64,000 nucleotides of DNA from Xestospongia bergquistia (Eukaryota > Porifera > Demospongiae > Haplosclerida > Petrosiidae), in assembly GCA_963965975.1 (NCBI GenBank), contig OZ014411.1:2501-66500 (forward strand), written 5' to 3'. Shown in pieces: positions 19,281 through 61,927 of the stretch (positions within the stretch are counted from its first letter, which is position 1; the number at the start of each line of letters is the position of its first letter). Made by a program: the position numbers and the translations under genes. Under the pieces are notes generated by a model that saw nothing but the letters and a program-made list of their open reading frames with translations, had not been told where the DNA came from and made no database searches.

Positions 19281-19315
19281 AAACCCTAAACCCTAAACCC
19301 TAAACCCTAAACCCT
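19281..19315 (+). repeat. Five perfect AAACCCT repeats (TTTAGGG type)
   Basis: Exactly five copies of AAACCCT stand between the right end of D and the left end of element A. The heptamer is the plant-type telomere repeat rather than the TTAGGG hexamer common in animals. Because sequence continues on both sides this is an internal tract, not a chromosome end. Related tracts lie at 29597, 38107 and 61907, always between a right end and the DNA that follows it and always with the same polarity. Confidence 0.9.
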
Positions 19316-19590
19316 TATACCTTCTGGAAGGCTACTAAACCCCAAGTAGAGGGGTGTGGCTTAAAATCATTTTCTGACAAAGGCGAGTCTTTTGAGACCA
19401 CATGTTTTTATAAGGGGGTGGGGTTTTGGGGTTTAACCCCAGCAAACCCCAAACCACAAAAATGTGATATTTACATTAGATAGGAGGTGGGGAATCTTTT
19501 TGGGTTTTTGGGGTTTGGGGTATACCAAAAAAGGGGTTGGGTTTATAAAGGATTTGACAACAAATAATCGCATATTTTTCAGTAAGCTAC
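19316..19590 (+). mobile_element. Left terminal region of element A
   Basis: Begins TATACCTTCTGGAAGGCTAC directly after the AAACCCT tract and contains G-rich runs such as GGGGTTTTGGGGTTT with nearby C-rich complements. A near-identical copy starts at 61928, also directly after AAACCCT repeats. Two copies with the same start next to the same heptamer support this being a true element end. No gene was seen. Confidence 0.7.
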
Positions 19591-22500
19591 ATTCAGTTTG
19601 TGTCCCTCGCAAATGTGGCCCTGCCTTCCAAAGTCGAATATAAAATCAGATGAGTGTCAAATTGAAACCTCATTAGTATAATATTAGCCATGCACTAATT
19701 GGTGATCTAAATTAATTTTCTGGGATTCCTACACGCAAGATTTTTAGAGAGGGACACAAAGATTTATCCACTGTAAAACATGTGTGTCCCTCAAACAAGG
19801 TCAATAAATTTAGAAGACACACTCCCTCATTAATCAATTCAAAATTTTGTGTCCCTCATATGTGTCCCTCAGCAATAACAAATCTACAAATTGTGAAAAG
19901 AATTCAAAATTGTCACCATTGGAAACCTTCCAGCAAATGTACTTTGCATTGGGGTTTTGGGGTTTATAAACCTATTCGTTTCAAAAAGGGCCACAAAATC
20001 TGTGTCCCTCATTCTCTTAAAATTGCTACAGAGCATACTAGGATTCCAAAACATTCACCATTGGAAACCTTATTTCAAATGTATTTTGCATTGGGGTTTT
20101 GGGGTTTGTAAACCTATTTGTTTCAGAAAGGGCCACAAAATCTGTGTCCCTCATTTTCCTAAAATTGCTACAGAGCATACTAGGATTCCAAAACATTCAC
20201 CATTGGAAACCTTATTTCAAATGTATTTTGCATTGGGGTTTTGGGGTTTGTAAACCTATTCGTTTCAGAAAGGGACACAAAATCTGTGTCCCTCATTCTC
20301 TTAAAATTGCTACAGAGCATACTAGGATTCCAAAACATTCACCATTGGAAACCTTATTTCAAATGTATTTTGCATTGGGGTTTTGGGGTTTATAAACCTA
20401 TTCGTTTCAAAAAGGGCCACAAAATCTGTGTCCCTCATTCTCTTAAAATTGCTACAGAGCATACTAGGATTCCAAAACATTCACCATTGGAAACCTTATT
20501 TCAAATGTATTTTGCATTGGGGTTTTGGGGTTTGTAAACCTATTTGTTTCAGAAAGGGACACAAAATCTGTGTCCCTCATTTTCCTAAAATTGCTACAGA
20601 GCATACTAGGATTCCAAAACATTCACCATTGGAAACCTTATTTCAAATGTATTTTGCATTGGGGTTTTGGGGTTTGTAAACCTATTCGTTTCAGAAAGGG
20701 ACACAAAATCTGTGTCCCTCATTCTCTTAAAATTGCTACAGAGCATACTAGGATTCCAAAACATTCACCATTGGAAACCTTATTTCAAATGTATTTTGCA
20801 TTGGGGTTTTGGGGTTTATAAACCTATTCGTTTCAAAAAGGGCCACAAAATCTGTGTCCCTCATTCTCTTAAAATTGCTACAGAGCATACTAGGATTCCA
20901 AAACATTCACCATTGGATACCTTATTTCAAATGTATTTTGCATTGAGGTTTTGGGGTTTGTAAACCTATTCGTTTCAGAAAGGGCCACAAAATCTGTGTC
21001 CCTCATTTTCCTAAAATTGCTACAGAGCATACTAGGATTCCAAAACATTCACCATTGGAAACCTTATTTCAAATTTATTTTGCATTGGGGTTTTGGGGTT
21101 TGTAAACCTATTCGTTTCAGAAAGGGCCACAAAATCTGTGTCCCTCATTCTCTTAAAATTGCTACAGAGCATACTAGGATTCCAAAACATTCACCATTGG
21201 AAACCTTATTTCAAATGTATTTTGCATTGGGGTTTTGGGGTTTGTAAACCTATTCGTTTCAGAAAGGGCCACAAAATCTGTGTCCCTCATTCTCTTAAAA
21301 TTGCTACAGAGCATACTAGGATTCCAAAACATTCACCATTGGAAACCTTCTTTTAAATAGATTTTGCATTAAGGTTTTGGGGTTTATAACCCCTTTGTTT
21401 TGTAAAGGGCCACAAAATCTGTGTCCCTCATCCTCCTAAAATTGCTACAGAGCATACTAGGATTCCAAAACATTAACCATTGGAAACCTTGCTCTAAATG
21501 CATTTTGCATTGGGGTTTTGGGGTTTGTAAACCCATTCATTTCAAGAAGGGCCACAAAATCTGTGTCCCTCATTCTCTTAAAATTGCTACAGAGCATACT
21601 AGGATTCCAAAACATTCACCATTGGAAACCTTATTTCAAATGCATTTTGCATTGGGGTTTTGGGGTTTGTAAACCTATTCGTTTCAGAAAGGGCCACAAA
21701 ATCTGTGTCCCTCATTCTCCTAAAATTGCTTAAGAGCATACTAGGATTCCAAAACATTAACCATTGGAAACCTTGTTCTAAATGCATTTTGCATTGGGGT
21801 TTTGGGGTTTGTAAACCCATTCATTTCAAGAAGGGCCACAAAATCTGTCTCCCTTATTCTCATTAGACCCTTACAGATGACACCATTAGAAACCTTGTTT
21901 CATATGCATTTTGCATTGGGGTTTTGGGGTTTGTAAACCTATTCGTTTCAGAAAGGGACACAAAATCTCTGTCCCTCAATCTCCTAAAATTGCTACAAAG
22001 CATACTAGGATTCCAAAAAATTCACCATTAGAAACCTTGTTTCATATGTATTTTGCATTGGGGTTTTGGGAGTTGCAAACCTATTCGTTTCAGAAAGGGA
22101 CACAAAATCTGTGTCCCTCATTCTCCTAAAATTGCTACAAAGCATACTAGGATTCCAAAACATTCACCATTAGAAACCTTGTTTCATATCCATTTTGCAT
22201 TGGGATTTTGGGGTTTGTAAACGTATTCGTTTCAGAAAGGGCCGCAAAATCTATGTCCCTCATTCTCTTAAAATTGCTACAGAGCATACTAGGATTCCAA
22301 AATATTCACCATTAGAAACCTTGTTTCAAATGCATTTTGCATTGGGATTTTGGGGTTCGTAAACCCTTTGAATCCAAGAAGAGCCGCAAAATCTGTGTCC
22401 CTCATTCTCAAAAATTCCCTACAGGTCGCATTAAGACTTCAAAACAGTCACCATTGCAAACCTTCTTTTAAATAGATTTTGCATTGGGGTTTTGGGGTTT

Positions 22501-22700
22501 GTAAACCTATTCATTTCAGAAAGGGCCACAAAATCTGTGTCCCTGATTTTCCTAAAATTGCTACAAAGCATACTAAGACTCCAAAACATTCACCATTGGA
22601 AACCTTGTTTGAAATGCATTTTGCATTGGGGTTTGGGGGTTTGTAAACCCATTCATTTCAAGAAGGGCCACAAAATCTGTGTCCCTCATTCTCATTAGAC
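19590..22700 (+). repeat. 142-bp palindrome minisatellite of element A
   Basis: About 19 units of 142 bp, regular from about 19915 onward and more diverged after 21350. Each has an interrupted palindrome, GGGACACA (or GGGCCACA), five bases, then TGTGTCCC, plus GGGGTTTTGGGGTTTGTAAAC and a CATTCACCATTGGAAACC block. In the first part, variants repeat every third unit (426 bp), for example the units at 19957, 20383 and 20809. Open frames of 70-110 codons run through the array in two frames only because 142 is not a multiple of 3; I do not take them as genes. It occupies the position of the 131-bp arrays of B and D. Confidence 0.9.
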
Positions 22701-22789
22701 CCTTACAGATGACACTAATGCTCCAAAACTGTTGCCATTGGAAACCTTGTCACATAACAACTTTATGCAATTTTTAGATTGGTTTCAAT

Positions 22790-23085
22790 TCCCCACCAAT
22801 TTAGAGAGGGACACAATGTTGTGTCCCCCCAATTCAGGGTGCACTGCAAAGAAGACTATTCTTACTGTTAAGTATTTTTTAAATTTTGTGTCCCTGTCCA
22901 AATTTCTTGAAGCCGTAAAAAATTACACAGTAAGCCTTGCACCTTCTCATCACTTCCATCATAAACCATGTGTTGTTGTGATGTTGACAAATATATATAT
23001 ATGTCCATATTTTGTAGAGGGACACACAATTTTGTGGCCTTCAATTGTGGCCTTTTGTGTCCCTTTGTGTCCCTCATCCAGAAAA
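22790..23085 (+). repeat. Inner-edge palindrome cluster of the A left end
   Basis: After the regular units stop, GGGACACAATGTTGTGTCCC, GTGTCCCTGTCC, GGGACACACAATTTTGTGGCC and TTGTGTCCCTTTGTGTCCCTC follow. All are variants of GGNCACAA or its complement. An inverted, partly diverged copy of about 22600-22990 lies at 41345-41735. Confidence 0.65.
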
Positions 23086-23169
23086 TATCCAGGAGCTTCA
23101 AAGAAATAGCTTTCAACACTTGACACTATGAAAATTTAATATAATTAAATCTTGCTCTAAAAGAAGTGT

Positions 23170-23445
23170 GGCCAGACAGATAGGTAGATAGGGAGATAGG
23201 TATACAGATGGTTAGATAGATAGATATATAAATAGATAACATAAGGTTAGATAGACAGATAGATAAATAGATAGATAGATAGATATATAGATAGATAGAT
23301 AGATACATAGATACATAGATACATAGATAGATAGATAGGTCGACAGACAGACAGACAGTCAGATATATAGATAGCTAGAATAGATAAGTTAGTAGATAGA
23401 TAGATAGATACATAGATAGATAAATTGATACATATATAGACATAT
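23170..23445 (+). repeat. GATA-type microsatellite
   Basis: Long imperfect run of GATA/TAGATA with GACA interruptions. Open frames on the minus strand here (YLSIYLSIYLS) are products of the repeat. Confidence 0.9.
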
Positions 23446-24078
23446 TAACTTTTTTCTTTTATAATAGTAACATAAAAACAAATGTTTACTACTAATGGTA
23501 ATAAATAATTATACTAATATGATGCCAAATACATAATCAACATTAATGCACACAAGTACACCAAAGTAAGTAACTTTGCAATTACACAGCAAAATGTACT
23601 ATAAGGACCCTTTTTACTTTTTAATATCAATCAGCCATGTTGAATTCAATGAGCATGCTCAGTTACTTCTTTTGTGGTTTTCAAGAGAAAAGTTAAGAAA
23701 TTGTATCTGCTTTTCTTTGTGAATTTAAAGTGTTTGCAGAGTCACAAATCATTCGTTTGTCTGTAAGTTTAATTAATAGTTTTATTGAGATATATTTTTT
23801 GTGTTGGTAAGCTTTTTTCACTAGTACAAAAGCTAAATTACTTCTATGTCAAATTTCAAACATTTGTGGCAGACATTTTGATTTTAATTAGGCGATTTTA
23901 TGCATAAATTAGGATTTTTGGTTACTATTGGACTGACTAACTATGGGTGATTCAAGTGGGGATGATTGTCCTCAGACACGCAGCCAATCAAATAAGTAAG
24001 TGATAAATCATAAACAAATATTAGCAATTTTCTTAGATTGTAGTCTTTTTTTCACCAAAAGAAATTGTATTTAATGTC

Positions 24079-24210
24079 TAGATAGATAGATAGATAGATA
24101 AAGATAGATAGATTGATAGATATAGATAGGTCAATGGATGGATGGATGAACAGATAGATAGATACACAGATAGATAGACAGATTGATTGATAGATAGATA
24201 GATAGAAACA
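24079..24210 (+). repeat. Second GATA-type microsatellite
   Basis: Imperfect GATA repeats with GGAT and GATT variants, inside the proposed first intron of gene A. Confidence 0.88.
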
Positions 24211-25938
24211 TACACAAAAAATCTCTCTTAGTTACAGAAATCTCATTATTTGAAAGGTATGTCAGTTAATAAACCAGCAAGTATGAGTATATTTGCTTTT
24301 TAAAAGGTGTGGTTAGGCCATTCTTCATTATTGCAAAATTGATTAGGTAGTCAATATATTACTAAGGTGTAGGTAGTAATAGTATATGGACTAAACATTT
24401 CTAAAAAGAGCCTGGAATAATTAGAATTCATTGAAAGGAGGACTATCGATGAGGTAGGGACTTTCTTTGTTATTGGTGTAGTATTGGTAAAAATTGTACT
24501 TTAAGTGAAGATTTTATAGCTTTATTGTAATTTGAAAACCTAACAGTTATTGATAAAAGTATTATACTTCTTCTATAAGTATAAAATTAATTTCATGGAT
24601 ACATTATCTTTTCTACATTAACCTATGCAAAGCAGTGATAACATAAGCAGTGACGAGGCAAGACCTCAAACCAGAAGCCTTAGAAAACGGTATATGGCTA
24701 TCACTCAGAAATATTATTTAATATAATAATAACAGGCTTAACGAATTTCTTACTCCGAAAGAGGTTGTAATATATGGATTGTCAAAAAATATTGACGCCC
24801 CTCTGACCATTAAAGCATCAACGGTATGTCAGGGGAGGGGTGTCTTTGCCACTGAAGATATTCCTTCCAATACATACCTCTGTGAATACAGAGGTGATGT
24901 AATTTTTGATAAGCAAATTTTACGTGAAAGGGAAGAAGAGTACAAGAAAGACAATGAAGGGTGTTTCATTTTTGAAACAACAACAGCTGATGGTACCTTC
25001 ATAGCCATTGATGCAACCAGGAAAATGACGTCAATTGCACGGTAGGTCAATCATTCAATCAATAATTTTGAAATAATGAAATATAGTTTAATCAATCATT
25101 CATCATCATCCCGGAACATTAATAGCCGATTCCTTCTACCAGTACTAATCAGAGGTAAATGGAGGATGGGCCTAATATCAACGAAACCAATAAAAAAGGG
25201 GGAGGAGGTTCTCTATGACTATGGAGTTCGGGATTCAGAAATCCCATGGTTGAAAAGTCGTACAACCTCAAAAACTAATGGTAAGTGAAACATATTTGTG
25301 CACTTTTAATGTATACAAAAATGAAACAGCTGTTCTTCCTGCAAACTCTCCTTCTATCACCTCAAGTATAGTTCTTCCTGTTCCTACTGCTACAACCTTG
25401 CACAACATGGAGGATTCTCCAACTTTTCCAGATGCTCCATATCTTTCAGATTGTCCATTCCTTCCTGATCTCACAGATCCTCAATCTGTTACAGGTTCTC
25501 AATCTCTTACAATGCTTCATCTATACTATCTCTTCCAGATTGTCAATCTCATTTTGTATCTACGTGTCCTTTAGATGAGACATGTGATTCATCTCATTCA
25601 GATCATTCATCCATTCCAGATCCTGCACTTTCATCTATAATATCTCTTCCAGATGTTCCATCTCTTTTTAGTTCTCAATGTCCTATAGATGAGACAAGTG
25701 GTCCATCTCTATCAGAACATCCATTCTTTGAAGATCATACAGATCATCAATATCTTACAAATCCAACAGGTTCTCAATCTCTTCCAGATGCTTAGTCTTT
25801 ACTATCTATTCCAGATTGTACATCCCTTTTACCTCCTTCATCTCCTTTATTTTTAGATGAGGCAGGTGGTCCAGCTCATTCAGAAAATGATTGTGAGTTA
25901 AATATATTCATGTCAGTGATTTTATGTATGATCTTCAG

Positions 25939-26078
25939 CATTGTGTTGTGTGTGCAAAAGGGTAATGCAAGGTAGTCATTTTTGTAAATGTTGCCTAAAA
26001 CAATGCCATCCCTTTTGTGGAGATACTCATGGCAATGAGGGATATGGATGTAATGTTACATGCTTTAATTGCACGGGG
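25939..26078 (+). other. PHD-like Cys/His module in gene A
   Basis: Exon with the pattern CCVCKRV, HFCKCCLKQCHPFC and GCNVTCFNC, i.e. C-x2-C, H-x-C-x2-C-x4-H-x2-C and C-x3-C-x2-C. This suggests a zinc-binding fold of PHD/RING type. Genes B and C have no counterpart. Splice acceptor CTTCAG and donor GGGGTAAGT flank it. The function is unknown; such modules often bind histone tails or protein partners. Confidence 0.6.
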
Positions 26079-26673
26079 GTAAGTATTAATTATATATATA
26101 TATTTTTTTTTTTTTTAATTCATTTATATATTCAGAAAGAAGAAGACCTTCTGCTGGTAGAAGATGCTAGCAAACCCTCAGCTAAAGTCATGGTATCTTC
26201 AGGTGAGTTTCCTCTGTGATATATAATTGCTTATTTGGTTTCATAGATTCAGAAGATGACATACGTATCATCACAAAGAAGTCAAAAATATCATTATCAT
26301 CTGGTAGGTCTTTTACTTTGAACAATGTTCATGTGGGTTCACAGATTCTGAGGACAACATTTCATCAGTAAATAAAACCAGGAAGCGCCTCTTATCCTCA
26401 AGTAAGTCTTTTAGTTTGAATCATGCTTATTTGTTCTCAGGTTCTGAAGAGGAGCTAATAAAATCTTCCAGACCACCTAAAGGTACCTCTCTTTTGCACA
26501 AAATATATTATATTCAAATTTCAACACTAGGTTACAAATCAATCATAGAAAGTAAAGTTAGAATCCTAATGACTACATATAAAACATATCTTTTAGTCAG
26601 TGACTCAGACTCAGCTAACCCAAGAAAAGGCAAGATATCTTGAAAATGTTAATCATTGTTCCCATTACTGTAG

Positions 26674-26825
26674 CAAAGACATACAATCGTGAAAAATACA
26701 GATATTTCCGCCTTTGCCCACTTAGTGGTGAGTGTGGCAACACACATCCTCTCAGAAAATTGAGCAACCATTTCGTATGTAAACATCCAAATGTGTCTAA
26801 AGAAGATCGTGCAAAATACCTCAAA
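26674..26825 (+). other. C2H2 finger exon of gene A
   Basis: Shows LCPLSGECGNTHPLRKLSNH then CKH, matching the C-x4-C ... H-x4-H finger that in genes B and C begins YFCP and also contains KLSNH. It precedes the recombinase in all three genes and is a candidate DNA-binding part. Confidence 0.65.
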
Positions 26826-28709
26826 GTAACTAGACATCAAGCAAAAACTTGACTTTCCTTGTTGTCAATAGTCAGCAAAAAAAATTCATCCAGCTTTGAG
26901 AAACAGGCAACAAAGAGAGGAAGCCGGCCCATCACAATCAACCATAGAGATTTCTTTTAAAAAATCCATGACCAAACCACCAGAGGTCGATATATCAACC
27001 TTTGGCAAGCGAAAAGGATACACTTATCATTATAACAAATTCTCCTTAGCAAACAAGGAGTTGCAAGATTTCTCTAACTTTTTACAGACACCAGATGGTG
27101 GTGGTAGGGGCCCAGATGTTGCAAAAGAGGTGAGGTTATTTTCTTAACAGCATTTTCATTTAATGCACAGATTGTTACTGATGTGTCCAAATATCTATAT
27201 TTTTCTCTGCCGACAACGATTGACTTCAGCTCCTTGCTAAACAAGGAACTGATTTTAAGATATATTGACAGGCTACAAGTAAGTCAATAAATACACAAAT
27301 CATGATGATACTTTATATTTTCAGAAAGACTTTGTTGGAGTCAGAGGTCAATTGACAAAATTAGAGAGACTAGACCATGGACTAGATTACTTGATGGAGC
27401 TTCCAGATCCTCCACATAATGAAATTGCTGGAATGAAAAACAAGCTACAGAAATGGAGGAAAGTTTTGAGACGAAAAGTGGCAGGGGAAAGGGAGGCAAG
27501 ACTTGAGAAAGATGTAGAGGCTGCATACACATTTGACAGCCTTCACAAGTTTTTAAACTCCAAAGAGCTATGGCATCTGGCCAACAAGGCCTGTAAAAAA
27601 GCCATAGAGGGCACTCAATCAAGTAAAGATAGTGATGACCTGGCCACATTTTTATTTGCACAAGTAATGAACAAATAACTACATTTTCTCTTATCTCAAA
27701 TATATCCTAGCTCATGTACACAAACACTCAACGTCCAGGAGCTATCATACACATGCTCATGGATGAGTTCAAAAATAGGGTGGAGATTGAAGGGAGAGTC
27801 ATCGTTAGGGTAGAAAATCATAAGACTGGCACTACATATGGTGCAGCAAAGATTGTGCTCACCAAAGAACTGGAGAAACTGGTCGAAACATATCTCATCC
27901 ATTTAAGGCCTCAGACTGAAGCTGAGGAGCTGTTCATAACATCTCAAGGAGCTAAATACATTGACTATGTACATAAAATAAAAAGTTTGGCAAAAAGGTA
28001 CAATCTGGAAATGCCCATCACAGCAACAACAGCTAGAAAACTTGCAGCAACTAAAGCTCATGAGACATTGACAACCACAGACACAAGACGCCTAGCTAAG
28101 CACATGGGCCATGCATTAGAGACAAGTGACCGTTACTATCAAGCCATCGATACTGCTAAATCAACGGTCAAAGTGCACACAATGATACAATCATTAATTT
28201 CAGGTAAAGACATACAGTAAAATGTTTTTTATTAATTATTTATTACAACCTTTTCAAAACCTCAAAAAGGTGACAATGGTAGGTTGTTCAGGTTGGATAT
28301 TATCCCTTTATACTATTTCAGATTCAGCCATGCTGCATTCAACCCCAGCAGCAATGACATCAATTCCTAATGAAGAGAAACCAATGCCAATTCAAGCAAC
28401 AGATTCAAGTATATCTAGATCATGAAGTTATCATTTTTTTAATGTCCTAAAAGGTACTGTTGATCCCTCAACTACTTTAGACAGTAAACGTAAGCAAAAC
28501 AATGATCATTAAACATTTAATGCCAAATTCATAGCTCAACAAAGAGTCTTTTATAATGACGAAGAAGTCAAACTTATCAAGGAATACTTCAAGGCATTCA
28601 TATCAATGAGTGAGGTCAGGAAACCACCAATCTCGGTCTGCAAGGAGTTTTGTCTCAAACATAAATTAACAACTCATGGAGATAAGCCAATAATCATTCA
28701 GGCTCGCAA

Positions 28710-28990
28710 AATACAGGATAAAGTTAGAAATATTATAATCATGTCCTCAAAGTAAGCTGCCTCAGATGTGTATAATAATTAATTGTGAATAGGTAATCCA
28801 TATATCAATGACATCATATATTCAAAGGTACTACCGTTATTTACTACTCTCATCTATTCTAAATATGTAATATTTAATTTGTAATTACTTTAAAAGTACA
28901 GGACAAACTTGGGAATATTATAATCATGGCCTCAAAGTAAGCTGCCTGAGATGTGTATAATCATTATTTGTGAATAGGTGGTCTATCTTT
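28710..28990 (+). repeat. Tandem duplication of the 3' end of gene A
   Basis: The stretch ATATTATAATCATGTCCTCA with its stop codon and about 80 following bases is repeated about 185 bp downstream (from about 28897), with several substitutions. Only the first copy is in frame with the gene. Confidence 0.7.
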
Positions 28991-29039
28991 GTCATTATCT
29001 ACTCAAAATAACTACTGTTATTTACTACTCTCATTTATT

Positions 29040-29345
29040 TTCATTACTTAACCCCCTTTATATGCCATAGATGGTATGTTAAGTAAATGATGATACTAAA
29101 ATATAAATATTAGTAATACCAATGAAATTAATGATAATGCATAATAATAATTATATCAATGATACCAATCAAATTAATAATGATGATGCCAATAAAATTA
29201 ATAGTGTACAGCAAATACATTATCAAATAATAATTACAATATCAATGATACCAATAAAATTAATAATAATGATAAAAATAAAATTAATAATTTACACTAA
29301 CAATTACATTATCATCATCAATAATTAAAATAAAAATTGATAGTA
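29040..29345 (+). repeat. AAT-rich low-complexity tract
   Basis: Degenerate runs of AATAAT, AATTAATAATGAT and ACCAATAAAATTAAT. No coding signal was seen. Confidence 0.75.
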
Positions 29346-29444
29346 AATAATTAATGCTAATGATGTTTCGAGACACAAATATTGACTTTCAAGACCAGTT
29401 TCAAGAACCATGTATACTTCAGATGAAGCACAGCTCTCAGAATG

Positions 29445-29596
29445 GACAAGGCCACAACAGCGTCAACAAAGGCTACAGGGACACAATTTTCCAATTTTTC
29501 CGAAGGACACAAGAAGGACACAAAAATCGGAATGCGGGGCCACAAAGGCCACAATTAGGGCTTCCGGGACACAAAAAGGGACACAATCAGATAGCT
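29445..29596 (+). repeat. Right subterminal motif cluster of element A
   Basis: Eight direct copies of GGNCACAA within about 150 bp (GGCCACAAC, GGGACACAAT, AGGACACAAG, AGGACACAAA, GGGCCACAAA, AGGCCACAAT, GGGACACAAA, GGGACACAAT), ending in GATAGCT. The motif is the half-site of the palindromes in the left array of the same element and differs from the motifs of B and D. Confidence 0.8.
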
Positions 29597-29603
29597 AAAC
29601 CCT
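29597..29603 (+). repeat. Single AAACCCT between elements A and B
   Basis: One heptamer follows GATAGCT, and then ATATACCTCACC, which resembles the TATACCTTCTGG start of the A and E left ends. The same arrangement as at 19281, reduced to one copy. Confidence 0.55.
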
Positions 29604-30374
29604 ATATACCTCACCGCCAAAAATCCCCAAATTTCGAGGGCGGTGTTCATTGTGTTCTACTTCACACCCCCTTTAACCACACCCCCTAAATTGTCAATGG
29701 AACCGCCCATTTTTGCATAATGGGGCCTTTAATGAAGTTCACCTTATCATTTTTATCTTTTTTTTGGTGCTTTATAAAATTTTGAAAAAATAATCAACAT
29801 GTGCACAAATGATGTGCCTAATATCAAAAAAATAATCCTACAAAAATCTCTTTCCATTTCAGAGATATCACTCAAAAACTTTAAGATAAATTTTTAAAAT
29901 CTGATTTTTTTAATATTTTTGTAATTCAAAAATCAATAAAAAATCAGAGGTAATGCCTAAAAATAAATAAAAATATGGGAAAGGTAGACAAATTATCTTT
30001 CTATCTAATCCCTTTGGTCCCACTCAATTCCCTAAACTGGTTGAGGAGTTATAAAAGAACTCCCAACTCTGTTTCGAAGGTCCTTTCACCAAAACTGATA
30101 TAAGGAAGCTTCAATTCCAGGAAGTAAGCATACCAATCAATTCGTCTCATCGTTTGCAATTCATTGCATTATTCAAACTAATGAAAATCATTATAGGAAG
30201 TAAGATAAAAGTCGTTAAATATTGACTACACATATTAGAATTAGTAATGACGAAATTGCTTCATAGTGATATCACATACCGTGCATACTCAAGTGGTTCA
30301 TAAACCCAAAAACCCCATGAATCCCCACATATTTAACTGAGTTATAGCAGTTTGTAAGTTTACAAACTGAACTA
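29604..30374 (+). mobile_element. Left terminal region of element B
   Basis: AT-rich DNA with C-rich patches (ACACCCCCTTTAACCACACC) between the AAACCCT unit and the 131-bp array. No gene was recognised. Confidence 0.45.
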
Positions 30375-31700
30375 TGTCCTTATATGTCCCATACTTCCAA
30401 AAGTGGCCCTAAACTCATAAAATTTAGCCCTGGAGGGAAAAACAGATATTTCATGTATCCTTGCCACCCCCTCTAAATAATGAAACCTGTTAAAATCAAA
30501 ACCCTATCTGGGACATATGTCCCAGGTGGGGTTTGTAAAAAAAATTATTGCATAAGAACCCTCTACTTCAGCATTACCAAGGCCCACCCCTAAACATCTG
30601 CAGGGTTACTTCTAAACCAAGTTTTTGACAAAACCCCAAAGGACCATATGTCCCAGGTGGGGATTCTAAAAAAATTCCTTCCAAAGTAACCATCTACATG
30701 AGTATTGCTAAACCCCACCCATAAAAGTTTCCAGGGTTACCCTTGAACCTAGTTATTCACAAAACCCCAAACGGCCATATGTCCCGGGTGGGGTTTCTAA
30801 AATACATCATGCCATAACAACCATCACCTTCAGCACTACTAACCCCAACCCTTAAAAGTCACCAGGGTTTCCCCTACACCAAGTTTTTAACAAAACCCCA
30901 AAAAGCCATATGTCCCAGGTGGGGTTTATAAAAAACGTCATTTCTTAATAACCATCTACTTCTACACTACTAAGCCCAACCCTTAAAAGTTACCAGGGTT
31001 TCCCCCAAGCCTAGTTATTCACAAAACCCCAAACGGCCATATGTCCCAGGTGGGGTTTCTAAAAGACGTCATTCCATAATAACCATCTCCTCTTACACTA
31101 ATAAACCCCACCCCTAAACATCTCCAGGGTAACCCCTAAACATAGTTGTTCACAAAACCCCAAAAGGCCATATGTCTCGGGTAGGGTTTCTAAAATACAA
31201 CAGTCCATGATAATCATCTACTTCAGAAATACTAAGCCCCATCCTTAAAAGTTTCCAGGGTTTCCCTTAAACCTGGTTATTCCCAAAACCCCAAACGACC
31301 ATATGTCCCAGGTAGGGTTTTTAAAAGGCGTCATTCCATGATAACCATCTACTTCGGAACTACTAAGCCCCTCCCTTAAAAGTCTCCAGGGTTTCCACAA
31401 AGACTAGTTATTCACAAAACCCCAAAGGGCCCTATGTCACGGGTGGGGTTTCTAAAAGACGTCATTCCATGATAACCATCTACTTCACTACTACTTTGTC
31501 CAAAACCTAAAAGAATCCAGGGTTTCCCCTGCACCTAGTTATTCACAAAAACCCAAACAGCCATATGTCCCAGGTGGGGTTTCTAAGGAAATACTTTTTA
31601 TGTGATCCATCTTCTTCAGCACTGCTAAGCCCCACCCCTAAAATTCTCCAGGGTCCCCCCCCAAACCTAGTTATAAACAAAAAGTCAAGGGACATAAGTC
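30375..31700 (+). repeat. 131-bp palindrome minisatellite of element B
   Basis: Nine palindromes of type GG(A/C)CATATGTCCC have CATATG at 30514, 30645, 30776, 30907, 31038, 31169, 31300, about 31431 (mutated) and 31562: exactly 131 bp each time. The palindrome sits between outer inverted arms AAACCCCAAA and TGGGGTTT, so each unit can fold into a longer imperfect hairpin. Other shared blocks are TCTCCAGGGTTTCCCC and CATGATAACCATCTACTTC. The period equals that of the D array although the unit sequences differ, and both place CCAGGGT upstream of the palindrome. Confidence 0.92.
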
Positions 31701-31939
31701 TGTCATTTGATTACAACAAAATTAAATGGGTGTGTCCACAAGATCTCACTATGCTATATTCAACATTTTTGAACTTCCAGGGTTAATGCACAAAAATGTT
31801 ATTGATCCTAAAATCTCTTTTGGGGACATATTACGAAAACTTTCTGGCAAAACCAAAAAATTGCAAGATGCATTTTGGATGATGATGTACACACCGACTA
31901 AGTGTGAATGTATTTGTTTTTGAAACTTCCATGACTCCC

Positions 31940-31975
31940 CTTTGTAAATAGGACATAGGACATATATGTCCCATA
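31940..31975 (+). repeat. Inner-edge palindrome of the B left end
   Basis: AGGACATAGGACATATATGTCC closes the B left array at the place where A and D carry similar clusters. Confidence 0.6.
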
Positions 31976-32099
31976 TTACTCACTCTCCTTAAAAATGACT
32001 TATTACGCCCGGTGAACCCCATAATGCACCACACAAAAATTCCTCCCCTCAACATTCCACCACCATCAAAAATTTCCATTTTTTCGTATGATTAAGTTA

Positions 32100-32813
32100 A
32101 ATAAATTAAATTGGTTTGTTTAATAGCAACTAAAACTAAAACTATTTTTTTAATGGCCAAATAGTTGTCTTTGACCTGATTTGTGAAAAATAACCTGATC
32201 AAACATCTCAATAAATTGTTTTGTATACTGACCGTTGTTATGTATGCATAACTATTCTATATGTATGCAAAACTGTTTTTAATATTTTTTAACATTGTTT
32301 ATTATCATAAATCAGGTAACAAATGTTTTGACAGAGGTGCCCTCTTTTCACAAATCAGGTCTCACATGATTTACAATTAATAACAAAAACTAAAATTTCA
32401 AAAAAGTGGTTGTGAACTTTAACCATTTCATAGTTGTCAATTTTAGCCATTTCATTTCCAGATTTCATACAATCAGATCAGCTAATCATTCAAAATTTCA
32501 AATGCGTAAACATTCTGATGATGATGGCTACAGCTACTTTTTCAATTGCTGGAAATGCATGTAGTGGGAAAGGAAATCGTCAAAGTGGCAAAACCTTGAA
32601 AGAGAAGTATTATTCAAAAATAACAAGGATTACTTGCATGTTTTACATGTAGTAAATTTATTACCTTGTTTGGTTTATTGATTTATAATAACAATAACTA
32701 AAAACCTATTAATATGACTAAATTTAAAATTTATGGATTTTTTGTCAACAAATTAATAACTACGTCAATAATTACAACAAATGCTTTAAAATAACAATAA
32801 CTAAAATGCAAAT
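32100..32813 (+). other. AT-rich spacer, nothing recognised
   Basis: Between the B left array and the SET-fragment repeats. A 72-codon open frame at 32434-32652 has no recognisable motif and I do not call it. A direct repeat of AAATCAGGT-like segments at 32170-32365 is visible. Confidence 0.6.
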
Positions 32814-34030
32814 CAATTACTTTTATAACATTGGTGAATACCCTTTAAGTCTTAATATAAGTGTCAGTAATTTTATTGAAATAAGACAACATCAGAGGTT
32901 TGCAGCTCTCTCAATTTGCTTGGATAAATGTGATTTTTTCTTTCCAATTTCATAAAAAGGTCGATGTAAAATGCAATGCAAAACAGATAAGTCAGCCATA
33001 CTGAAGTTTCTTTGTATTCCTCAATTGAAAGATATAGTTGCCACAGTAGAAGCCAAAGTGGATGACAGGGTCATGTTCTTTGATGGAACAAGACGACTAA
33101 CTCAGTTTGGATGCAATAATAATAATTAAAACACAAATCCATTACTTTTACAAAATTAGTGGATATCCAGTAAGGCTTAATATAAGTGTCAGCAAAAATT
33201 TTATTGAAGAAAGACAACATCAGAAGCTTGCAGCTCTCTCAAATAGCTTCGATAAGTGTGAGTTTTTCTTTCGAATTTCATAAAAAGGTCAATGTAAATG
33301 TAATGCAAAACAGATAAGTCAGCCATACTGAAGTTTCTTTATATTCCTTAATTGAAAAATGGTTGCCACAGTAGAAGCCAAAGTGGATGGCAGAGTTGTG
33401 TTCCTTGATAGAACAAGACGACTAAATCAGTTTGTTTATAATAACAATAACTGCAATACAAATCCATTACTTTGACAACATTAGTGGATATCCTTTAAGG
33501 ATTAATATATACAAGTGTCGGCCACTTTCTTGAAATAAAACAACATCAGAGGTTTGCAGCTCTCTCAATTAGCCTTGATAAATGTGAGCATTTATTTCAA
33601 ATTTCATAAAAAGGTCAATGCAAAACAGATAAGTCAGCCGTACTGAAGTTTCTTTGTATTCCTCAATTGAAAGAAATAGTAGCCACAGTAGTAGCTAAAG
33701 TGGATGGCAGAGTCGTGTTCTTTGATGGAACAAGACGACTAAATGAGTTTGTTTGCAATAACAATAACTGAAATACAAATCCATTACTTTTACAACATTA
33801 GTGGATATCCTTTAAGGGTTAATATATGTGTCGGCCATTTTATTGAAATAAGATAACATCAGAGGTTTACAGCTGTTTCGATTAGCTTGGATAAATGTGA
33901 GTTTTTCTTTCCAATTTCATAAAAAGGTCAATGTAAAATGTAATGCAAAAGCAGAAAAGTCAGCCATACTGAAATGTCTTTGTATTCCTAAATTGTCCTC
34001 ATTTGGAGTCTTGCATTTTACTATATATTG
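32814..34030 (+). repeat. Four ~320-bp repeats carrying SET-exon fragments
   Basis: Units start near 32814, 33136, 33462 and 33777. The first three contain, at 33031-33110, 33361-33434 and 33671-33751, a piece of the gene B SET exon (GCCACAGTAGAAGCCAAAGT through GACGACTAA.TCAGTTTG; the source is 35324-35401). The fourth has lost it. The fragments lack the SAM-binding and NHS motifs and have no open reading frame of their own. They lie just upstream of gene B, on the same strand. Confidence 0.8.
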
Positions 34031-34087
34031 TATCATTGATTCAGTGCTTTCCATTAGTAACTTTAAATTGAGGACAGTTGTCATAAT

Positions 34088-37000
34088 ATGGAGTCTTATC
34101 CTCTAAAGAATATTTTTACTGACACAGAGAACTCAGACAGGTTAGAATTATGTAAATGACACTACTGATATTTATTCCATTTACAGTGACATCGAACCAA
34201 CTTTAACTAGGAGAGTCAGGTAATACCTATTCAGTTAATGTCATTGATGTCAAATCACTTCTTTACACTAAAGGATGAGGAGAATTGAAGATGAATCAAG
34301 TGATTCTTGTAAGGAATAAGGTGTTTTACAAATTCACATATTTTCTAACAGCAAAAGGTGATATACAAGATGACGATATCATTGACTTGGAGATCGACTC
34401 AGAGGAATCACATAATTGTTAGCAATCCATTATTCTTTACACTAAATACTTAATTTTCAGCTGCTCATTTAACTTCAACTGCTCTGAAGATCTCAAGTGA
34501 TAGTATGTTTCAGTTTTGTGGTAGTTTATTAAATTTACTTGCATTCCAGCACCTTATAGTAATGATAAAGAGGAGTTTCACGATTGTAAGCACACTTTAA
34601 CTTCGTATACAGCATTTTGTTTATTCCAATAGCTAGAGAAGACATAGAAACAGAACGATCATACAATGGTAAAGAATTCCTATCCTGTACCTAATATTTC
34701 TAACCACTCATTTCACTATAGTCATTGAGAAAAGTATCAGCAATGGTTAGCGTTTGTCATCTCAATATTAACTTACATGCATTTCAGCTTGTACCAGTGA
34801 TGAAGAAGACACTGATAGTAGTTAGCATTGTTTTCACTTAATAACCCAATATTTTGTCCTTTTCTTTAGCGGAATACCCTGCAAGTGTACAAGAGCTGTC
34901 TTTACCAGAAGACAACTGTAAGTACTAATTATCTAGTAGTGCATATTTACCTACATCTAGTTGCTTCTAGTGATGAGGATACACGATCTTCAATAAGAAG
35001 ATCCCGCCGTGTCAAGTAATGTCAATATATGTAAAAATTATTTTAAAAGTAAAAAAATAGACATGTTCGTACCGTCAAAGAACTTACTATTGATGCACTC
35101 AACAGGGGTCTGGAGGCCCCAATTGAGGCAAGATTTTGTAAAGAGAAAGGTAGGGTTATGAATCTATGCCTCATATGTACTCTTTGGTGTTAGGCAAGGG
35201 GAGAGGTGTCTTCTCTCTAAGTGACATTCCGAGAGGGACATATATCTGTGAATACAAAACTACAAGTGTGTACTCCAAGAAGGAACATCTAAAACGAGAG
35301 ATGGAGTACTCCATCAATGAAGAAATTGTCGCCACCGTAGAAGCCAAAGTGGATGGCAGAGTCATGTTCTTTGATGGAACAAGACGACTCAATCAGTTTG
35401 GTTCATTACTTAATCATTCTCCCCAACCCAACTGCAAGCCATTTCCCCCAGTCTTTGTGAGAGGAAAGTATAGAATTGGATTTTTGGCATTACAAGATAT
35501 CTCCAAAGACACAGAATTGACTTGGGACTACAACTACAGGGATCCTAAGTGGCCCTGGCTCTATGGTATGGTCAACATTTCTCAACCACAATTTCAAAAC
35601 ATTATCACAGGTGCTAAAGTAGAAGAACCAGCTGATCCCAAGCCCACATCTACAATTGCTCCAACTGCAATTGGTCCATCTACAACTGCTCTGAAGAAAA
35701 AAGGTTAGCAATTACACTGTAACAAAAATTATTTTTATTATTTTAGTAACATCATTTGAAAGGTATAGAAGGAGCTATTTTTGCCCCGTGCCTAACTGCA
35801 AATCACGGGCACAAAAAAAATTGAGCAACCACCTCAAGAGTGTACATGGCATCGTCAATTCAGAGGAGAGGCACAGGCTGTTGAAAGAATCAAAAATACG
35901 GGGGCCTGCAAAGCACAAGGAGAGAAAGCTTACCATCACTCTCAAGGAATGTTTTGCTCGTGAAAAAGCCAGAAGTTGTGGTCTTGTTATTCCTAACATT
36001 GAGAAGAAACGTGGCTCAACTCGCCACTATCCGAGGTTCTCCATTGAATCAGAGGCCATTCTCACAAAGTTTTTTGACAACCTGACCTCTTTCGATGGTG
36101 GGTGTCGTTCTCTCCGTGAAGCAAGACAAATATGTGCTGATGTCAGCAAATGCTTAGCCTTTGTCAATCCAAACGCTTGCATTTGGACATCATTAACTAA
36201 TGTGGCACGTGTAAAGCTCTTCTTTGAGCAACTTACAGCAGATGGTATTGGAAGCGATGGGCTAACAACAAAAGTGGAGAGATTGCAGACTGCTTTAAAG
36301 TACTGCATTCGAGAAAACTCCAGTGGTGTTTCATTTGACGAGTGTACTGGCACAATTAGCCGTTTAAGCATGTGGAAGTCCACATTTTTAAAAAGTAAAA
36401 GATCCTCTCAGATCGAAAGAGAAATGTGTGCAAACAGGGAGGCAGAATCTAAATACCTCTCATGTATTGATGGCTTTTTTCAAAGCTGGCAGGTTCAGAA
36501 CTTTCTCAAGGAAGTTCATCAATGTCAGCACCTATCTGATGAAAACGTCACGTATCTTGCCACATATCTTTTTGCTAGTCTTACATATAAAAACTGGCAA
36601 AGGCCATCACCAGCTCTCCATCTCACCCTGTCTGAGGCAAATGAGGCAGTACTAATTGAAGGCAAGCTCACAATACACAGCCGCACCCACAAGACCGCAC
36701 ATACATATGGTCCAGCTATACTTGTCCTCGAGGGACAGGACATTGATCTCTTCAAAATGTATATGAATAGTGTACGGCCTAACATACCTACAAGCTCAAC
36801 AAATACAGTAGCCCTTTTAACAAGTAATGGGAGACCTCTGACTCATTACCGAGATCTCCTTTTGTCACTGACAAGGAAGTTGGGGCTGACAATGTTGCCA
36901 AACTTCTCTACCATCAGAAAGGCTGGTGCAACTGCCACTGTCAGTTCACAAGGGGCAAAGGGCCTTGAGATCATTAGTGAACACATGTCCCACTCTCGGA

Positions 37001-37516
37001 GTACATCAGAGAGGTACTACAGGATGCGAAAAAGGGATAAGGGTGCAGTCGAGGCATTCCAAACCATCAAAAATATCACATCAGGTAAATATATACATTG
37101 CAATAATGTCACTCGAACTTTTCTTAGAAACTACTGGGAATCCAACACAAACAATCTCTCCCCCAAATGCAGAACATTCAACACCTCCACCAAATCAAAC
37201 CAGCAAGGATATGATATCAGGTAAATATATTTATATGTTTATATATATTACAAGGATATGACTTGAACGTTTTTTAGAAACCACAGATAACCCAACACCA
37301 ACAACACCTCTCCCAAATCCAACACTTCCAATGCCTCTCCCAAATCCACAAGACACAATAAATACTTCATTAGAAGATTACTTTTGTAGCCACATAGCAA
37401 AAGGAAAGACGCCATCCTTGAAGGAGTGCCGTGCCTTTTTGATAGAGACAAAGGACAAACAAAAGTCTGGAAAACAAATCCAGGACAAAATTAGAAACAT
37501 CATAAAGAAACTGTAG
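34088..37516 (+). CDS. Gene B: KMT5A-like SET domain + C2H2 finger + tyrosine recombinase, intact
   Basis: Exons (all GT-AG, all in frame): 34088-34140, 34187-34219, 34274-34308, 34352-34417, 34461-34502, 34550-34585, 34633-34668, 34722-34745, 34788-34820, 34870-34917, 34961-35015, 35061-35149, 35194-35565, 35611-35703, 35747-37084, 37128-37220, 37278-37516; 894 residues. Residues 1-153 are acidic and Ser-rich, with IIDLEID. The SET region spans about 154-307 (GKGRGVF, FDGTR, LLNHS, WDYNYRD), and the C2H2 finger about 346-372. The recombinase spans about 420-775, with candidate catalytic Arg624 (QRPS), Lys654, Arg729 (STIRK), His754 (HMSH) and Tyr763 (RYY); the usual box-II His position is Ser. 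The C-terminal domain contains CRAFL and KQIQDKIRNI. By family the protein should cut and rejoin DNA as a Crypton-like integrase; the SET part may methylate histone or another lysine substrate. The 45-nt intron 35566-35610 is a multiple of 3, so keeping it would add 15 residues. The start was chosen because MESYPLKNIF aligns with gene C MEKYFPRMKIF. Confidence 0.85.
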
Positions 37517-37529
37517 TTTACAGCTTCTG

Positions 37530-37810
37530 TTTCTTACCATTCATTTAACTTGTGTTTATGATTCTATCTTACGAGCAATTTACCTTGCATTTATGTATAC
37601 ATCTTATAACCATTTCTTTATGTTTATATTTTACAAGCCGCATATTTATGTTCCTCCCTTACCAGCCATTTATGTTATCTTTATCATTTATATCTTTTCA
37701 GCCATATCTTAACAAATTGTATTTATGTTTATATCTTACGAGCCATTTTATTTATCTTTATAACATACTATTCATTAATAAATGTTTATATGCTACAAAT
37801 CTCTTAATTG
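37530..37810 (+). repeat. Degenerate TTTATGTTTATATCTTACAA repeats 3' of gene B
   Basis: About six diverged copies of a ~40-45 bp unit (TTTATGTTTATATYTTACRAGCCAT). An AATAAA at 37777-37782 could serve as a poly(A) signal, but such hexamers are expected by chance in DNA this AT-rich. Confidence 0.5.
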
Positions 37811-37869
37811 TATTTAAAAGAACATAAAAAATCCTAAAAAGTAAGAGACTATGTATTTGGCATATGCAA

Positions 37870-38106
37870 TATTTAAAGGACATCTAAAAAATTAATAGGA
37901 AATTATATTCAAGGACATGACAAAGTTTTTGTAGAGAGGACATATCTCCAAAGGTTTTAAGTAAACAGGACATGTATATGTCCCTAAGTAACTTTATATG
38001 GCCTTTTCGTAAATAGGACATATGGCCCAAGGTTCAAAGTAAAAAGGACAGGCATATGTCCCCAAAATAGCAAATAGGACATATCCCGGGACATTTCGAC
38101 AGGGCT
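37870..38106 (+). repeat. Right subterminal motif cluster of element B
   Basis: Seven or more GGACAT motifs (AAGGACATCT, AGGACATATC, AGGACATGTATATGTCCC, AGGACATATGGCCC, AGGACATATCCCGGGACATT), ending in TTCGACAGGGCT at 38106. The motif matches the CATATG palindromes of the left array of the same element. Gene C's right end closes in almost the same way (TTGTCAGGGCT at 61906). Confidence 0.8.
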
Positions 38107-38120
38107 AAACCCTAAACCGT
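38107..38120 (+). repeat. AAACCCT + AAACCGT after the B right end
   Basis: Two heptamers, the second with one substitution. What follows (38121 onward) is not a recognisable left end, so this may be where element B meets older or host DNA. Confidence 0.7.
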
Positions 38121-60400: not shown

Positions 60401-61049
60401 TGCAGAGCAAACAAGACTGGTAAAACATATGGACAAGCTGTAATGGTACTGGAAGGCAATGACATTGAACTTTGGAAGCTCTTTTTCACCAAAGTTAGAC
60501 CAGCCATTCAAGGAGTAAAGGATGTAGCTCTCATCACTAGTAGTGGGTTTTCTTTGAGCCACTACAGGGATCTTGTAAAATCTCTTACCAGCCATTTTGG
60601 CATAAGATCATTTCCCAACATCGCAACTGTTCGTAAAACTGGAGCAACTGCAGCCGTCTCTAGTCTGACAGAAGAATCTATGGAAAAAATAAGTAAGCAT
60701 ATGTCTCATAGCATAGCTACGTCCAAAAGATATTACCGAATGCGCAATAGGCATTCCTCAGCCATTGCGGCATTTTTAGATATTAAAATCATCACAGGTA
60801 AGGTAAACATTTCAATGTTATGTATTATGCTTTTTCCTCACAGGTGCCTCCAGTTCAAAAGAAGAACCCAAAAAGGGTTTTTCTAAAGACACAGTAGAGA
60901 CAGTTCAAAACTTCTTTTCCACTTCCATTGCAAAGAAAAAGACACCAAGTCTTGAAATGTGCCGAGCTTTCCTGAGAAAGCAAAATATTACAAACAAATC
61001 CCCAAAACAAATTCAGGACAAAGTTGCAAATATAATAAAGTATACATAA
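57453..61049 (+). CDS. Gene C: SET / C2H2 / tyrosine-recombinase protein with one 2-nt break
   Basis: Exons: 57453-57502, 57552-57611, 57957-58063, 58112-58213, 58317-58418, 58544-58606, 58652-58703, 58746-58834, 58878-59251, 59400-60797, 60844-61049. All phases fit, except that the SET exon is 374 nt against 372 nt in gene B. The excess falls at a T8 run (59164-59171) and leads to a stop at 59186-59188. Without those two bases the total is 866 residues. The SET part shows GKGRGVF, FDGTR, FINHS and WDYNYRDPKWPW. The C2H2 finger has YFCPIGGCK and KLSNHLTDVHH. The recombinase has NWQRPS, NKTGKTYG, ATVRKTG, HMSH and RYY; the box-II His position is Ala. The C-terminal domain has CRAFL and PKQIQDKVANII. 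The intron at 58835-58877 begins with GC instead of GT. Gene B's intron before the finger is absent here. Upstream lie copies of the first exons; downstream lie a hairpin and the element's right end. Confidence 0.8.
57655..57840 (+). repeat. Duplicated copy of gene C exons 1-2
   Basis: 57440-57615 is repeated about 215 bp downstream (CAGTCCTACAGCAATTGAAA, TTTCTCTGACTCAGAAAGGT, CCCAAACAAGAGGACTAGAT). In the copy the start codon reads TTG and frames are broken. It falls within the 57612-57956 intron of the model. Confidence 0.75.
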
Positions 61050-61906: not shown

Positions 61907-61927
61907 AAACCCGAAACCCTAAACCCT
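61907..61927 (+). repeat. Three AAACCCT-type heptamers after the C right end
   Basis: AAACCCG, AAACCCT and AAACCCT follow GGGCT directly; the next bases begin the left end of another A-type element. Same order and polarity as at 19281. Confidence 0.85.

What the first reader, a model, noticed from the sequence alone, without database searches (positions are those of the whole stretch)
34088..37516. A mobile-element protein that joins a SET methyltransferase to a tyrosine recombinase
Gene B splices cleanly into 17 exons with an N-terminal acidic region, a KMT5A/SETD8-like SET domain, a C2H2 finger, a tyrosine-recombinase domain with R, K, R, H and Y in place, and a conserved C-terminal domain. 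Genes A and C repeat the same order. Known Cryptons carry a recombinase and simple DNA-binding parts; I know of no described family with a built-in histone-type methyltransferase. Such an element could mark the chromatin where it lands, or modify its own recombinase.
Basis: partly seen in the sequence, partly recalled or inferred. Interest (0 to 1): 0.92.

Follow-up and report, generated by a model that had tools for sequence, protein, structure and literature searches.

The report
Telomere-targeting recombinase fused to a methyltransferase
This animal genome carries a mobile DNA element whose one recognised protein joins a histone-type methyltransferase to a DNA-cutting tyrosine recombinase, and such elements and their gene-less offspring sit precisely inside telomere repeats at several chromosome ends.

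Summary
Gene B splices into 17 in-phase exons at 34088-37516 (893 aa): acidic N-terminus, SET, C2H2, tyrosine recombinase (R623 K653 R728 H753 Y762), conserved C-terminal domain. The fusion recurs at the start of contig C13 and in predicted proteins P0023-P0026 from unnamed sources; a model of one matches SET8/MLL1 and Cre/Xer. Seven 3.62-kb derivatives of a SET-YR element (100% identical; two cut by contig ends) and 2.75-kb derivatives of element B itself (29602-38107), lacking the whole gene, lie at other chromosome ends beside telomeric arrays; tandem junctions show a CTA core. Best explanation: a telomere-specific YR DNA transposon with a built-in SET domain. Telomere-targeting YRs are known in endogenous nimaviruses and target-specific Cryptons exist; a SET-armed one did not turn up in my searches. 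Against: 16 of 34 YR matches are internal; spread by recombination between telomere arrays is not excluded; SET activity is untested; there are no transcripts.

The parts
29602..38107 (+). Element B, 8.5 kb, from the CTA core at its outer (chromosome-end side) terminus to the CTA core at its inner terminus
   Evidence: Six homologous copies on C10 (3), C8, C5, C2 begin at window 29595 or 29602; copies on C10 and C5 end at 38107-38121; tandem copies on C10 join 38105-38107 to 29602-29604
29595..29604 (+). Junction of element A inner end and element B outer end: CTAAACCCTA, one telomere repeat unit from one CTA core to the next
34088..37516 (+). Gene B, 17 exons, 893 aa: acidic N-terminus, SET, C2H2, tyrosine recombinase, C-terminal domain
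34088..35149 (+). Exons 1-12, acidic region and pre-SET segment
   Evidence: 41 D/E versus 16 K/R in residues 1-150
35194..35565 (+). Exon 13, SET domain (GRGV, EY, DGTR, NHS, WDY motifs)
   Evidence: PF00856 1.1e-18; motif alignment
35611..35703 (+). Exon 14, linker between SET and finger
35747..37084 (+). Exon 15, C2H2 finger and tyrosine recombinase; R 36601-36603, K 36691-36693, R 36916-36918, H 36991-36993, Y 37018-37020
   Evidence: fold
37128..37220 (+). Exon 16, linker
37278..37516 (+). Exon 17, conserved C-terminal domain (KQIQDKIRN)
37878..38094 (+). Subterminal GGACAT/ATGTCC motifs of element B, 9 in 37800-38108; the densest such stretches of the window are the inner ends of B and C
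38102..38118 (+). Inner terminus GGGCTA and a remnant of about one and a half telomere repeats
32397..37779 (+). Segment missing from the 2.75-kb gene-less derivatives of element B on C10 (its two borders abut there)
24736..25280 (+). Gene A SET exons (24736-25041, 25087-25280), KMT5A-like
26619..28752 (+). Gene A C2H2-like finger, YR with R, K, R, H, Y, and C-terminal domain, read from open frames
19303..29597 (+). Element A; outer end approximate, inferred from a second copy whose match begins at C1:64405; inner end at 29597
58878..59251 (+). Gene C SET exon with one frameshift near 59160-59185
59400..60797 (+). Gene C C2H2 and YR exon
60844..61049 (+). Gene C C-terminal domain
61600..61919 (+). 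Inner end of gene C's element with 9 GGACAT/ATGTCC motifs in 61600-61908 and GGGCTAAA followed by telomere-like repeats
   Evidence: its outer end was not found

Best explanation
Gene B is the only gene I recognised in an 8.5-kb tyrosine-recombinase DNA transposon that inserts into the host's telomere repeat. The YR domain recombines a circular form of the element (joint AGG-G-CTA-TATACC) with CTA in the telomeric AACCCTAAACCC, so that copies land in one register and, because telomere repeats are directional, with the gene's 3' end facing the chromosome interior. The C2H2 finger and C-terminal domain probably bind the subterminal GGACAT motifs or the telomere (inferred). The N-terminal SET domain is an intact-looking lysine methyltransferase that travels with the recombinase and most likely methylates histones (or the recombinase, or telomere proteins) at the landing site, either to open telomeric chromatin or to quiet the insertion (inferred, untested). 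Shown: gene model, fold, conservation, shared termini, telomeric junctions, derivatives without the gene, tandem joints. Inferred: circle, catalysis, mobilisation of derivatives in trans, role of SET.
For: Fusion; 50 (C13 copy, from before SET to the C-terminal stop in one spliced frame); 62, 65, 66 (P0023-P0026, predicted proteins of 720-747 aa with PF00856 and YR); 108 (a model of P0024 matches MLL1/SET8 and Cre); 114 (20 of 23 SET matches followed by YR within 4 kb). Constraint: pN 0.31-0.45 against saturated pS in both domains. Telomere: C2 ends in a TTTAGGG array, and so does C15 as far as fetched (342 bases short of its end); 1667 overlapping exact 35-mers, reversed control 0. Target: 7 copies of a 3.62-kb element 100% identical over what they share of a 3401-base query (5 cover all of it, 2 are cut by contig ends), identity stopping at telomere repeats. 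It is a SET-YR element of C13 type minus about 4.8 kb. Element B derivatives on C10 lack 32398-37778, the whole gene, and keep both ends. Tandem joints on C5 and C10 show the core without a telomere repeat. Orientation: 18 of the 18 YR matches within 120 kb of an end point 3' inward.
Against: 16 of 34 YR matches are not near ends: C4 5.05-5.11 Mb (7), C7 5.97-6.02 Mb (5), C7 4.28 Mb (1), C1 0.44-0.54 Mb (3); 15 of these 16 have stops inside the match (some may be introns), and the five C4/C7 loci fetched hold only 2 telomere 7-mers in all. The matches are not independent. The gene-less element on C10 near 7.303 Mb, with 2 of the 16 matches to an end-plus-telomere motif, has the opposite orientation; that motif contains telomere repeats, so its nearness to ends proves little. 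C2 and C8 share the order B derivative, telomere array, 3.62-kb element, as exchange between chromosome ends would also give. No transcripts. Gene C is frameshifted. The 100%-identical, hence youngest, copies have no SET. YR relatives without a visible SET exist (P0012-P0015, P0027).
Confidence: 0.78

Rival explanations
1. A subtelomeric gene family: SET-YR is a host (domesticated) protein, and copies and gene-less segments spread between chromosome ends by recombination within telomere repeats, as yeast Y' elements do (recalled), not by the recombinase.
For: 17 exons; divergent paralogues clustered at one chromosome end; telomere repeats on both sides would also give identity ending at the junction; C2 and C8 share a two-element order.
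Against: Families with little shared DNA end at the same place of the 7-mer with related terminal motifs; tandem joints lack any telomere repeat and meet at CTA; derivatives lose the gene and keep both ends; catalytic residues kept (R, K, R, H, Y read in A, B, C, C13; the C13 copy has F for the Tyr just before the catalytic one).
Confidence: 0.14
2. The YR is the active mobile enzyme, and the SET domain is carried without an enzymatic role, as a binding module.
For: No activity evidence; gene B's SET is diverged from solved SETs; YR relatives without visible SET exist.
Against: EY, NHS and DY kept in 9 of 9 aligned fused proteins and GRGV in 8 of 9 (C13 reads GRSV); pN well below pS.
Confidence: 0.25
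3. SET and YR are adjacent independent genes wrongly joined by splicing on paper.
For: No RNA data; the linker exon is short.
Against: Same intron position in B and C; C13 joined in one frame through ten exons; P0023-P0026 are single predicted proteins elsewhere (their DNA was not seen); 20 of 23 SET matches are followed by YR.
Confidence: 0.04

Closest known systems
Telomere-specific tyrosine recombinases of endogenous nimaviruses (majani-, pemoni-, some whispoviruses), Kawato et al. 2023, PMC10871703 (abstract and passages read)
   Same: YR typically with a C2H2 domain; insertion into the host telomere repeat; authors call it not closely related to Cryptons, DIRS or Enterprise
   Different: Carried by viral genomes (majaniviruses 278-401 kb) in crustaceans; 'SET domain' and 'methyltransferase' occur 0 times in the main text. 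Sequence relation not tested here
Cryptons (Kojima and Jurka 2011, PMC3212892, passages read), including CryptonV, some families specific to microsatellites (Kapitonov and Jurka 2012, seen only as cited in PMC8869645)
   Same: YR gene, no long direct or inverted terminal repeats, short direct repeats at termini, proposed circular intermediate; target specificity in CryptonV
   Different: Domains named in the passages are GCR1_C, HTH, C48 peptidase and a mariner DDE; 'methyltransferase' occurs 0 times; no telomere-repeat target in the passages seen
SETMAR/Metnase (search listing and abstract starts only; rest recalled)
   Same: SET methyltransferase joined to a transposon enzyme
   Different: A primate host gene that gained a mariner (DDE) transposase; not mobile as a unit
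KMT5A/SETD8
   Same: SET motif set and PWL tail; best solved match of gene A
   Different: Stand-alone H4K20 enzyme (recalled)
TRAS/SART-type telomere-targeting retrotransposons (TRAS1 seen only in the reference list of PMC8869645; rest recalled)
   Same: Insert into telomere repeats
   Different: Non-LTR retrotransposons with endonuclease and reverse transcriptase

Membership tests
Crypton (YR DNA transposon) | Tyrosine recombinase with R, K, R, H, Y and YR fold | tested here: met
   Residues; fold; the HxxR box lacks its H
Crypton (YR DNA transposon) | Short (4-6 bp) terminal direct repeats, no TIRs or long direct repeats | tested here: inconclusive
   CTA (B) or CCTA (3.62-kb family) is shared by both ends and target, 3-4 bp; TIRs were not searched for systematically
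Crypton (YR DNA transposon) | YR falls within a Crypton clade in a tree | not tested
   No Crypton reference sequences in hand
Crypton (YR DNA transposon) | Circular intermediate | tested here: inconclusive
   Tandem joints have the sequence expected of a circle joint; no reads
Nimaviral telomere-specific YR | C2H2-YR element inserted in the host telomere repeat | tested here: met
   C2H2 residues
Nimaviral telomere-specific YR | Belongs to the nimaviral YR clade | not tested
   No sequence of that family in hand
Nimaviral telomere-specific YR | Carried by a large viral genome | tested here: not met
   Element B is 8.5 kb with one recognised gene
KMT5A-type SET methyltransferase | DATR...NHS...DY motif set and closest match to KMT5A | tested here: inconclusive
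   Gene A: yes. Gene B: DGTR for DATR, best solved match ASH1L
KMT5A-type SET methyltransferase | H4K20 monomethylation | not testable with these tools
   Needs an enzyme assay
Myb/telobox DNA-binding domain (C-terminal domain) | Significant profile match to Myb/SANT | tested here: inconclusive
   PF13837 in 2 of 11 members, best E 0.061; no Myb among the PDB sequence matches; helices predicted

The most novel reading that the evidence does not exclude
A lineage of DNA transposons carries its own chromatin writer: a SET methyltransferase fused to a telomere-specific tyrosine recombinase. It uses a methyl mark (for example H4K20me) to gain or keep access to telomeric chromatin, and by stacking insertions outward in telomere arrays it builds the subtelomeres of its host, possibly helping to lengthen chromosome ends.
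Probability: 0.38. Interest if true: 0.93.

Novelty: new variant of a known kind. Interest (0 to 1): 0.87.

Why it matters
If right, this is an animal DNA transposon whose recombinase is built together with a histone-type methyltransferase, a combination that did not turn up in the searches made here, and a small non-viral element that targets telomere repeats with a tyrosine recombinase. It makes two old questions testable in one protein: how mobile elements use chromatin marks to choose and keep a niche, and how subtelomeres are built. The defined joint and target also suggest a tool for directed insertion at telomeres.

Tried and rejected
Local artefact: made unlikely by the C13 copy, P0003 and P0023-P0026. 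Telobox/Myb nature of the C-terminal domain (suggested to me by its QDKVRN motif, recalled): not supported, 2 of 11 members at E about 0.06, no Myb in PDB sequence searches; left open. Relatives with contigs: genome contigs with P0003 (27 pattern stretches, none confirmed), viral contigs with P0006 (11 stretches, none confirmed). PDB sequence search with the YR exon: 0 matches up to E 10. Rfam on the window at gathering scores: 0. dN/dS: dS saturated, so only pN and pS are given. Inversion of an outer 870-bp segment between CCCTA sites: suggestive, but no match beyond it, so not claimed. Whether P0024 and P0003 lie in this genome: four searches unanswered and a fifth; within the loci held, P0023-P0026 match at 43-47% at best, P0003 at 85% over 168 aa on C4, P0002 at 82% to gene C, and P0007 is the C1-end gene itself, so the protein sources include this species or a very near one. 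Literature searches; subscription papers, Repbase Reports and preprints are not in that library, so absence is weak.
Full report

THE FUSION. (a) In genes B and C the SET exon ends at the same place, after WPWLYG. (b) A copy near the start of contig C13 runs from before SET to the C-terminal stop through ten exons in one frame. (c) Protein searches found P0003 (665 aa, PF00856 and YR; it seems to read through two short introns) and P0023-P0026 (720-747 aa, PF00856 at 1.6e-17 to 1.2e-20, each with finger, YR and C-terminal domain); P0028 is a shorter relative with part of a SET. Their DNA was not seen and their sources are unnamed; P0007 is the C1-end gene of this genome and P0002 is 82% identical to gene C, so some sources are this species or near it, while P0023-P0026 match no fetched locus above 47%. 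(d) A model of P0024 (mean pLDDT 68.5, low in the SET half) lists MLL1 (1.5e-5), Cre (3.2e-5) and SET8 (4.5e-5) among its best Foldseek matches. (e) 20 of 23 SET matches in the genome have a YR match within 4 kb downstream on the same strand; three of the 20 are SET fragments inside element B; the three without are C14:4979892 (perhaps a host SET gene), C4:5121612 and C4:5082962. (f) In trees of the fused proteins B, C13, C1-end and P0003 group together in both domains, as do P0023-P0026, with gene A apart; in the SET tree gene A falls beside KMT5A and ASH1L, so one origin of the fusion is compatible with the trees but not shown, and YR proteins without a visible SET (P0012-P0015, P0027) branch near P0023-P0026 and gene A with weak support. 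YR matches without SET also exist in this genome: the C7 cluster, C1:88338 and the seven telomeric derivatives.

CONSTRAINT. Between B, C, C13 and C1-end, YR identity is 39-45%, pN 0.40-0.45, pS 0.81-0.84; for SET (B, C13, C1-end) identity is 49-62%, pN 0.31-0.39, pS 0.93-0.95 (gene C left out of SET because of its frameshift). Nine fused SETs keep EY, NHS and DY; eight keep GRGV and C13 reads GRSV.

HOST AND PLACE. The window is C1:2501-66500 of a 146.5-Mb genome of 21 contigs, 15 of them of 5.4-28.2 Mb. Wnt matches at three places mark it as an animal. C2 ends in a TTTAGGG array, and C15 does as far as fetched; the 35-mer of that repeat has 1667 overlapping matches, its reversed control 0. 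Of 34 YR matches, 18 lie within 120 kb of a chromosome end, all 18 with the gene's 3' end inward; 16 lie elsewhere (C4 7, C7 6, C1 0.44-0.54 Mb 3), 15 of them with stops inside. The matches are not independent, since one gene can give several and tandem copies exist.

TELOMERIC INSERTION. Seven copies of a 3.62-kb element, on C2, C5 (three), C8 (two) and C15, are 100% identical over what they share of a 3401-base query; five cover it all, two are cut by contig ends. On C2, C15 and the start of C8 both borders were seen, 3622 bases apart, with telomere repeats on either side. Identity ends at the borders; further inward the flanks differ, except that C2 and C8 share 752 bp, which is the outer part of an element B derivative, and C5 and C15 share an 83-85% satellite. 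On the gene strand the inner end reads AAAGTCAGG-CCTA-AACCC and the outer end AAAC-CCTA-TATACTTGACC. Two tandem copies on C5 meet as AAAGTCAGG-CCTA-TATACTTGACC, with no telomere repeat. This is what a site-specific recombinase gives if a circle with that joint recombines with CCTA of the telomere. The 3.62-kb element holds only the last part of the YR frame and matches the C13 SET-YR copy in three segments (85.4, 88.8 and 91.9%), lacking about 4.8 kb between two of them. The C13 copy and the C1-end copy also border telomere repeats at their inner ends; their outer borders were not seen.

ELEMENT B. Six copies of its outer end, on C10 (three), C8, C5 and C2, begin at window 29595 or 29602, after telomere repeats where I looked (C10 twice, C5, C2, C8). 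Its inner end is followed by telomere repeats on C10 and C5. On C10, 32397 is joined directly to 37779: a derivative of about 2.75 kb that lost the whole SET-YR gene but kept both ends, three times complete (two in tandem, joined at CTA), with partial copies beside, and with fewer internal repeats than the window copy. One of these elements (C10 near 7.303 Mb) has the orientation opposite to the rest. The window copy is flanked inward by about one and a half telomere repeats and then a 280-bp dispersed repeat, and outward by the inner end of element A, one telomere unit away. On C2 and C8 a 3.62-kb element lies outside a B derivative with a telomere array of 518 and 432 bp between them, so insertions are stacked outward; that both ends share this order could also reflect exchange between them. 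GGACAT/ATGTCC motifs are densest in the window at the inner ends of elements B and C (9 in 309 bp each, against 0.95 per kb overall; 0 of 5000 letter shuffles of the B end reached 9), and the 3.62-kb element has 33; these are likely protein-binding sites (inferred).

HOW IT WORKS. Shown: one gene, both folds, shared termini, target register, orientation, derivatives without the gene. Inferred: excision as a circle, YR catalysis in trans on derivatives, DNA binding by finger and C-terminal domain, methylation by SET. The role of SET is open: histone marking at the landing site, self-methylation, or methylation of a telomere protein. The C-terminal domain is conserved among the relatives aligned, but no known family was recognised with confidence.

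COMPARISON. Telomere-specific YRs with a C2H2 domain are described for endogenous nimaviruses, and their authors found them not closely related to Cryptons (PMC10871703, abstract and passages). CryptonV elements specific to microsatellites are cited in PMC8869645 (passages). In the passages seen, Kojima and Jurka 2011 give short terminal direct repeats and accessory C48 peptidase and GCR1_C domains; 'methyltransferase' and 'sponge' do not occur in the main text. SETMAR is a host gene (listing; recalled). No listed paper joining SET to a YR element came up, several of which were capped listings; of the two papers holding all four terms, the one opened (PMC9406493, passages) uses them separately and the other was not opened. 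It works like a target-specific Crypton or a nimaviral telomere YR; membership in either is not settled, since no tree with those sequences could be made.

LIMITS. No transcripts, no assay, host unnamed, sequence near chromosome ends partly masked, and spread by recombination between telomere arrays is not excluded for individual copies. Gene C is broken or mis-sequenced in SET; gene A was modelled only in part. On checking I lowered the main confidence from 0.80 to 0.78 and the novel reading from 0.40 to 0.38, because the DNA of P0023-P0026 was not seen and because C2 and C8 share a two-element block.

Noticed in passing
   Followed up: partly
C1:76.3-77.1 kb and 90.8-91.7 kb (L010-L012): The outer 870 bp of the 3.62-kb element lies inverted there, bounded by inverted CCCTA sites; could be a recombinase-made inversion.
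   Followed up: partly
window 33028-33750: Three short fragments of the SET exon, about 320 bp apart, upstream of gene B inside element B.
   Followed up: no
window 44022-44780: ORF with DDE_Tnp_4 (PF13359, 7.5e-17), harbinger-type by recall.
   Followed up: no
window 46237-47166 and 39579-40534: ORFs that look by eye like hAT and a broken pogo/CENPB-type transposase (names recalled, not searched).
   Followed up: no
window 38119-38398: 280-bp dispersed repeat starting right at the inner junction of element B; 96-97% copies on C7, C13, C4 and C1, two of them near the old C4 and C7 clusters.
   Followed up: no
G000:C4 5.05-5.12 Mb and C7 5.97-6.02 Mb: Internal clusters of SET-YR/YR copies, most with stops, with almost no telomere repeat in the loci fetched; perhaps former chromosome ends or another target.
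   Followed up: partly
contig ends C2, C15: Telomere repeat is TTTAGGG in an animal genome (Wnt present), whereas a TeloBase passage gives TTAGGG for chordates and other major animal groups.
   Followed up: partly
window 19915-22700 and 62500-63600: Repeats of about 142 bp spacing shared by element A and its second copy, also inverted at 41.3-41.7 kb.
   Followed up: no
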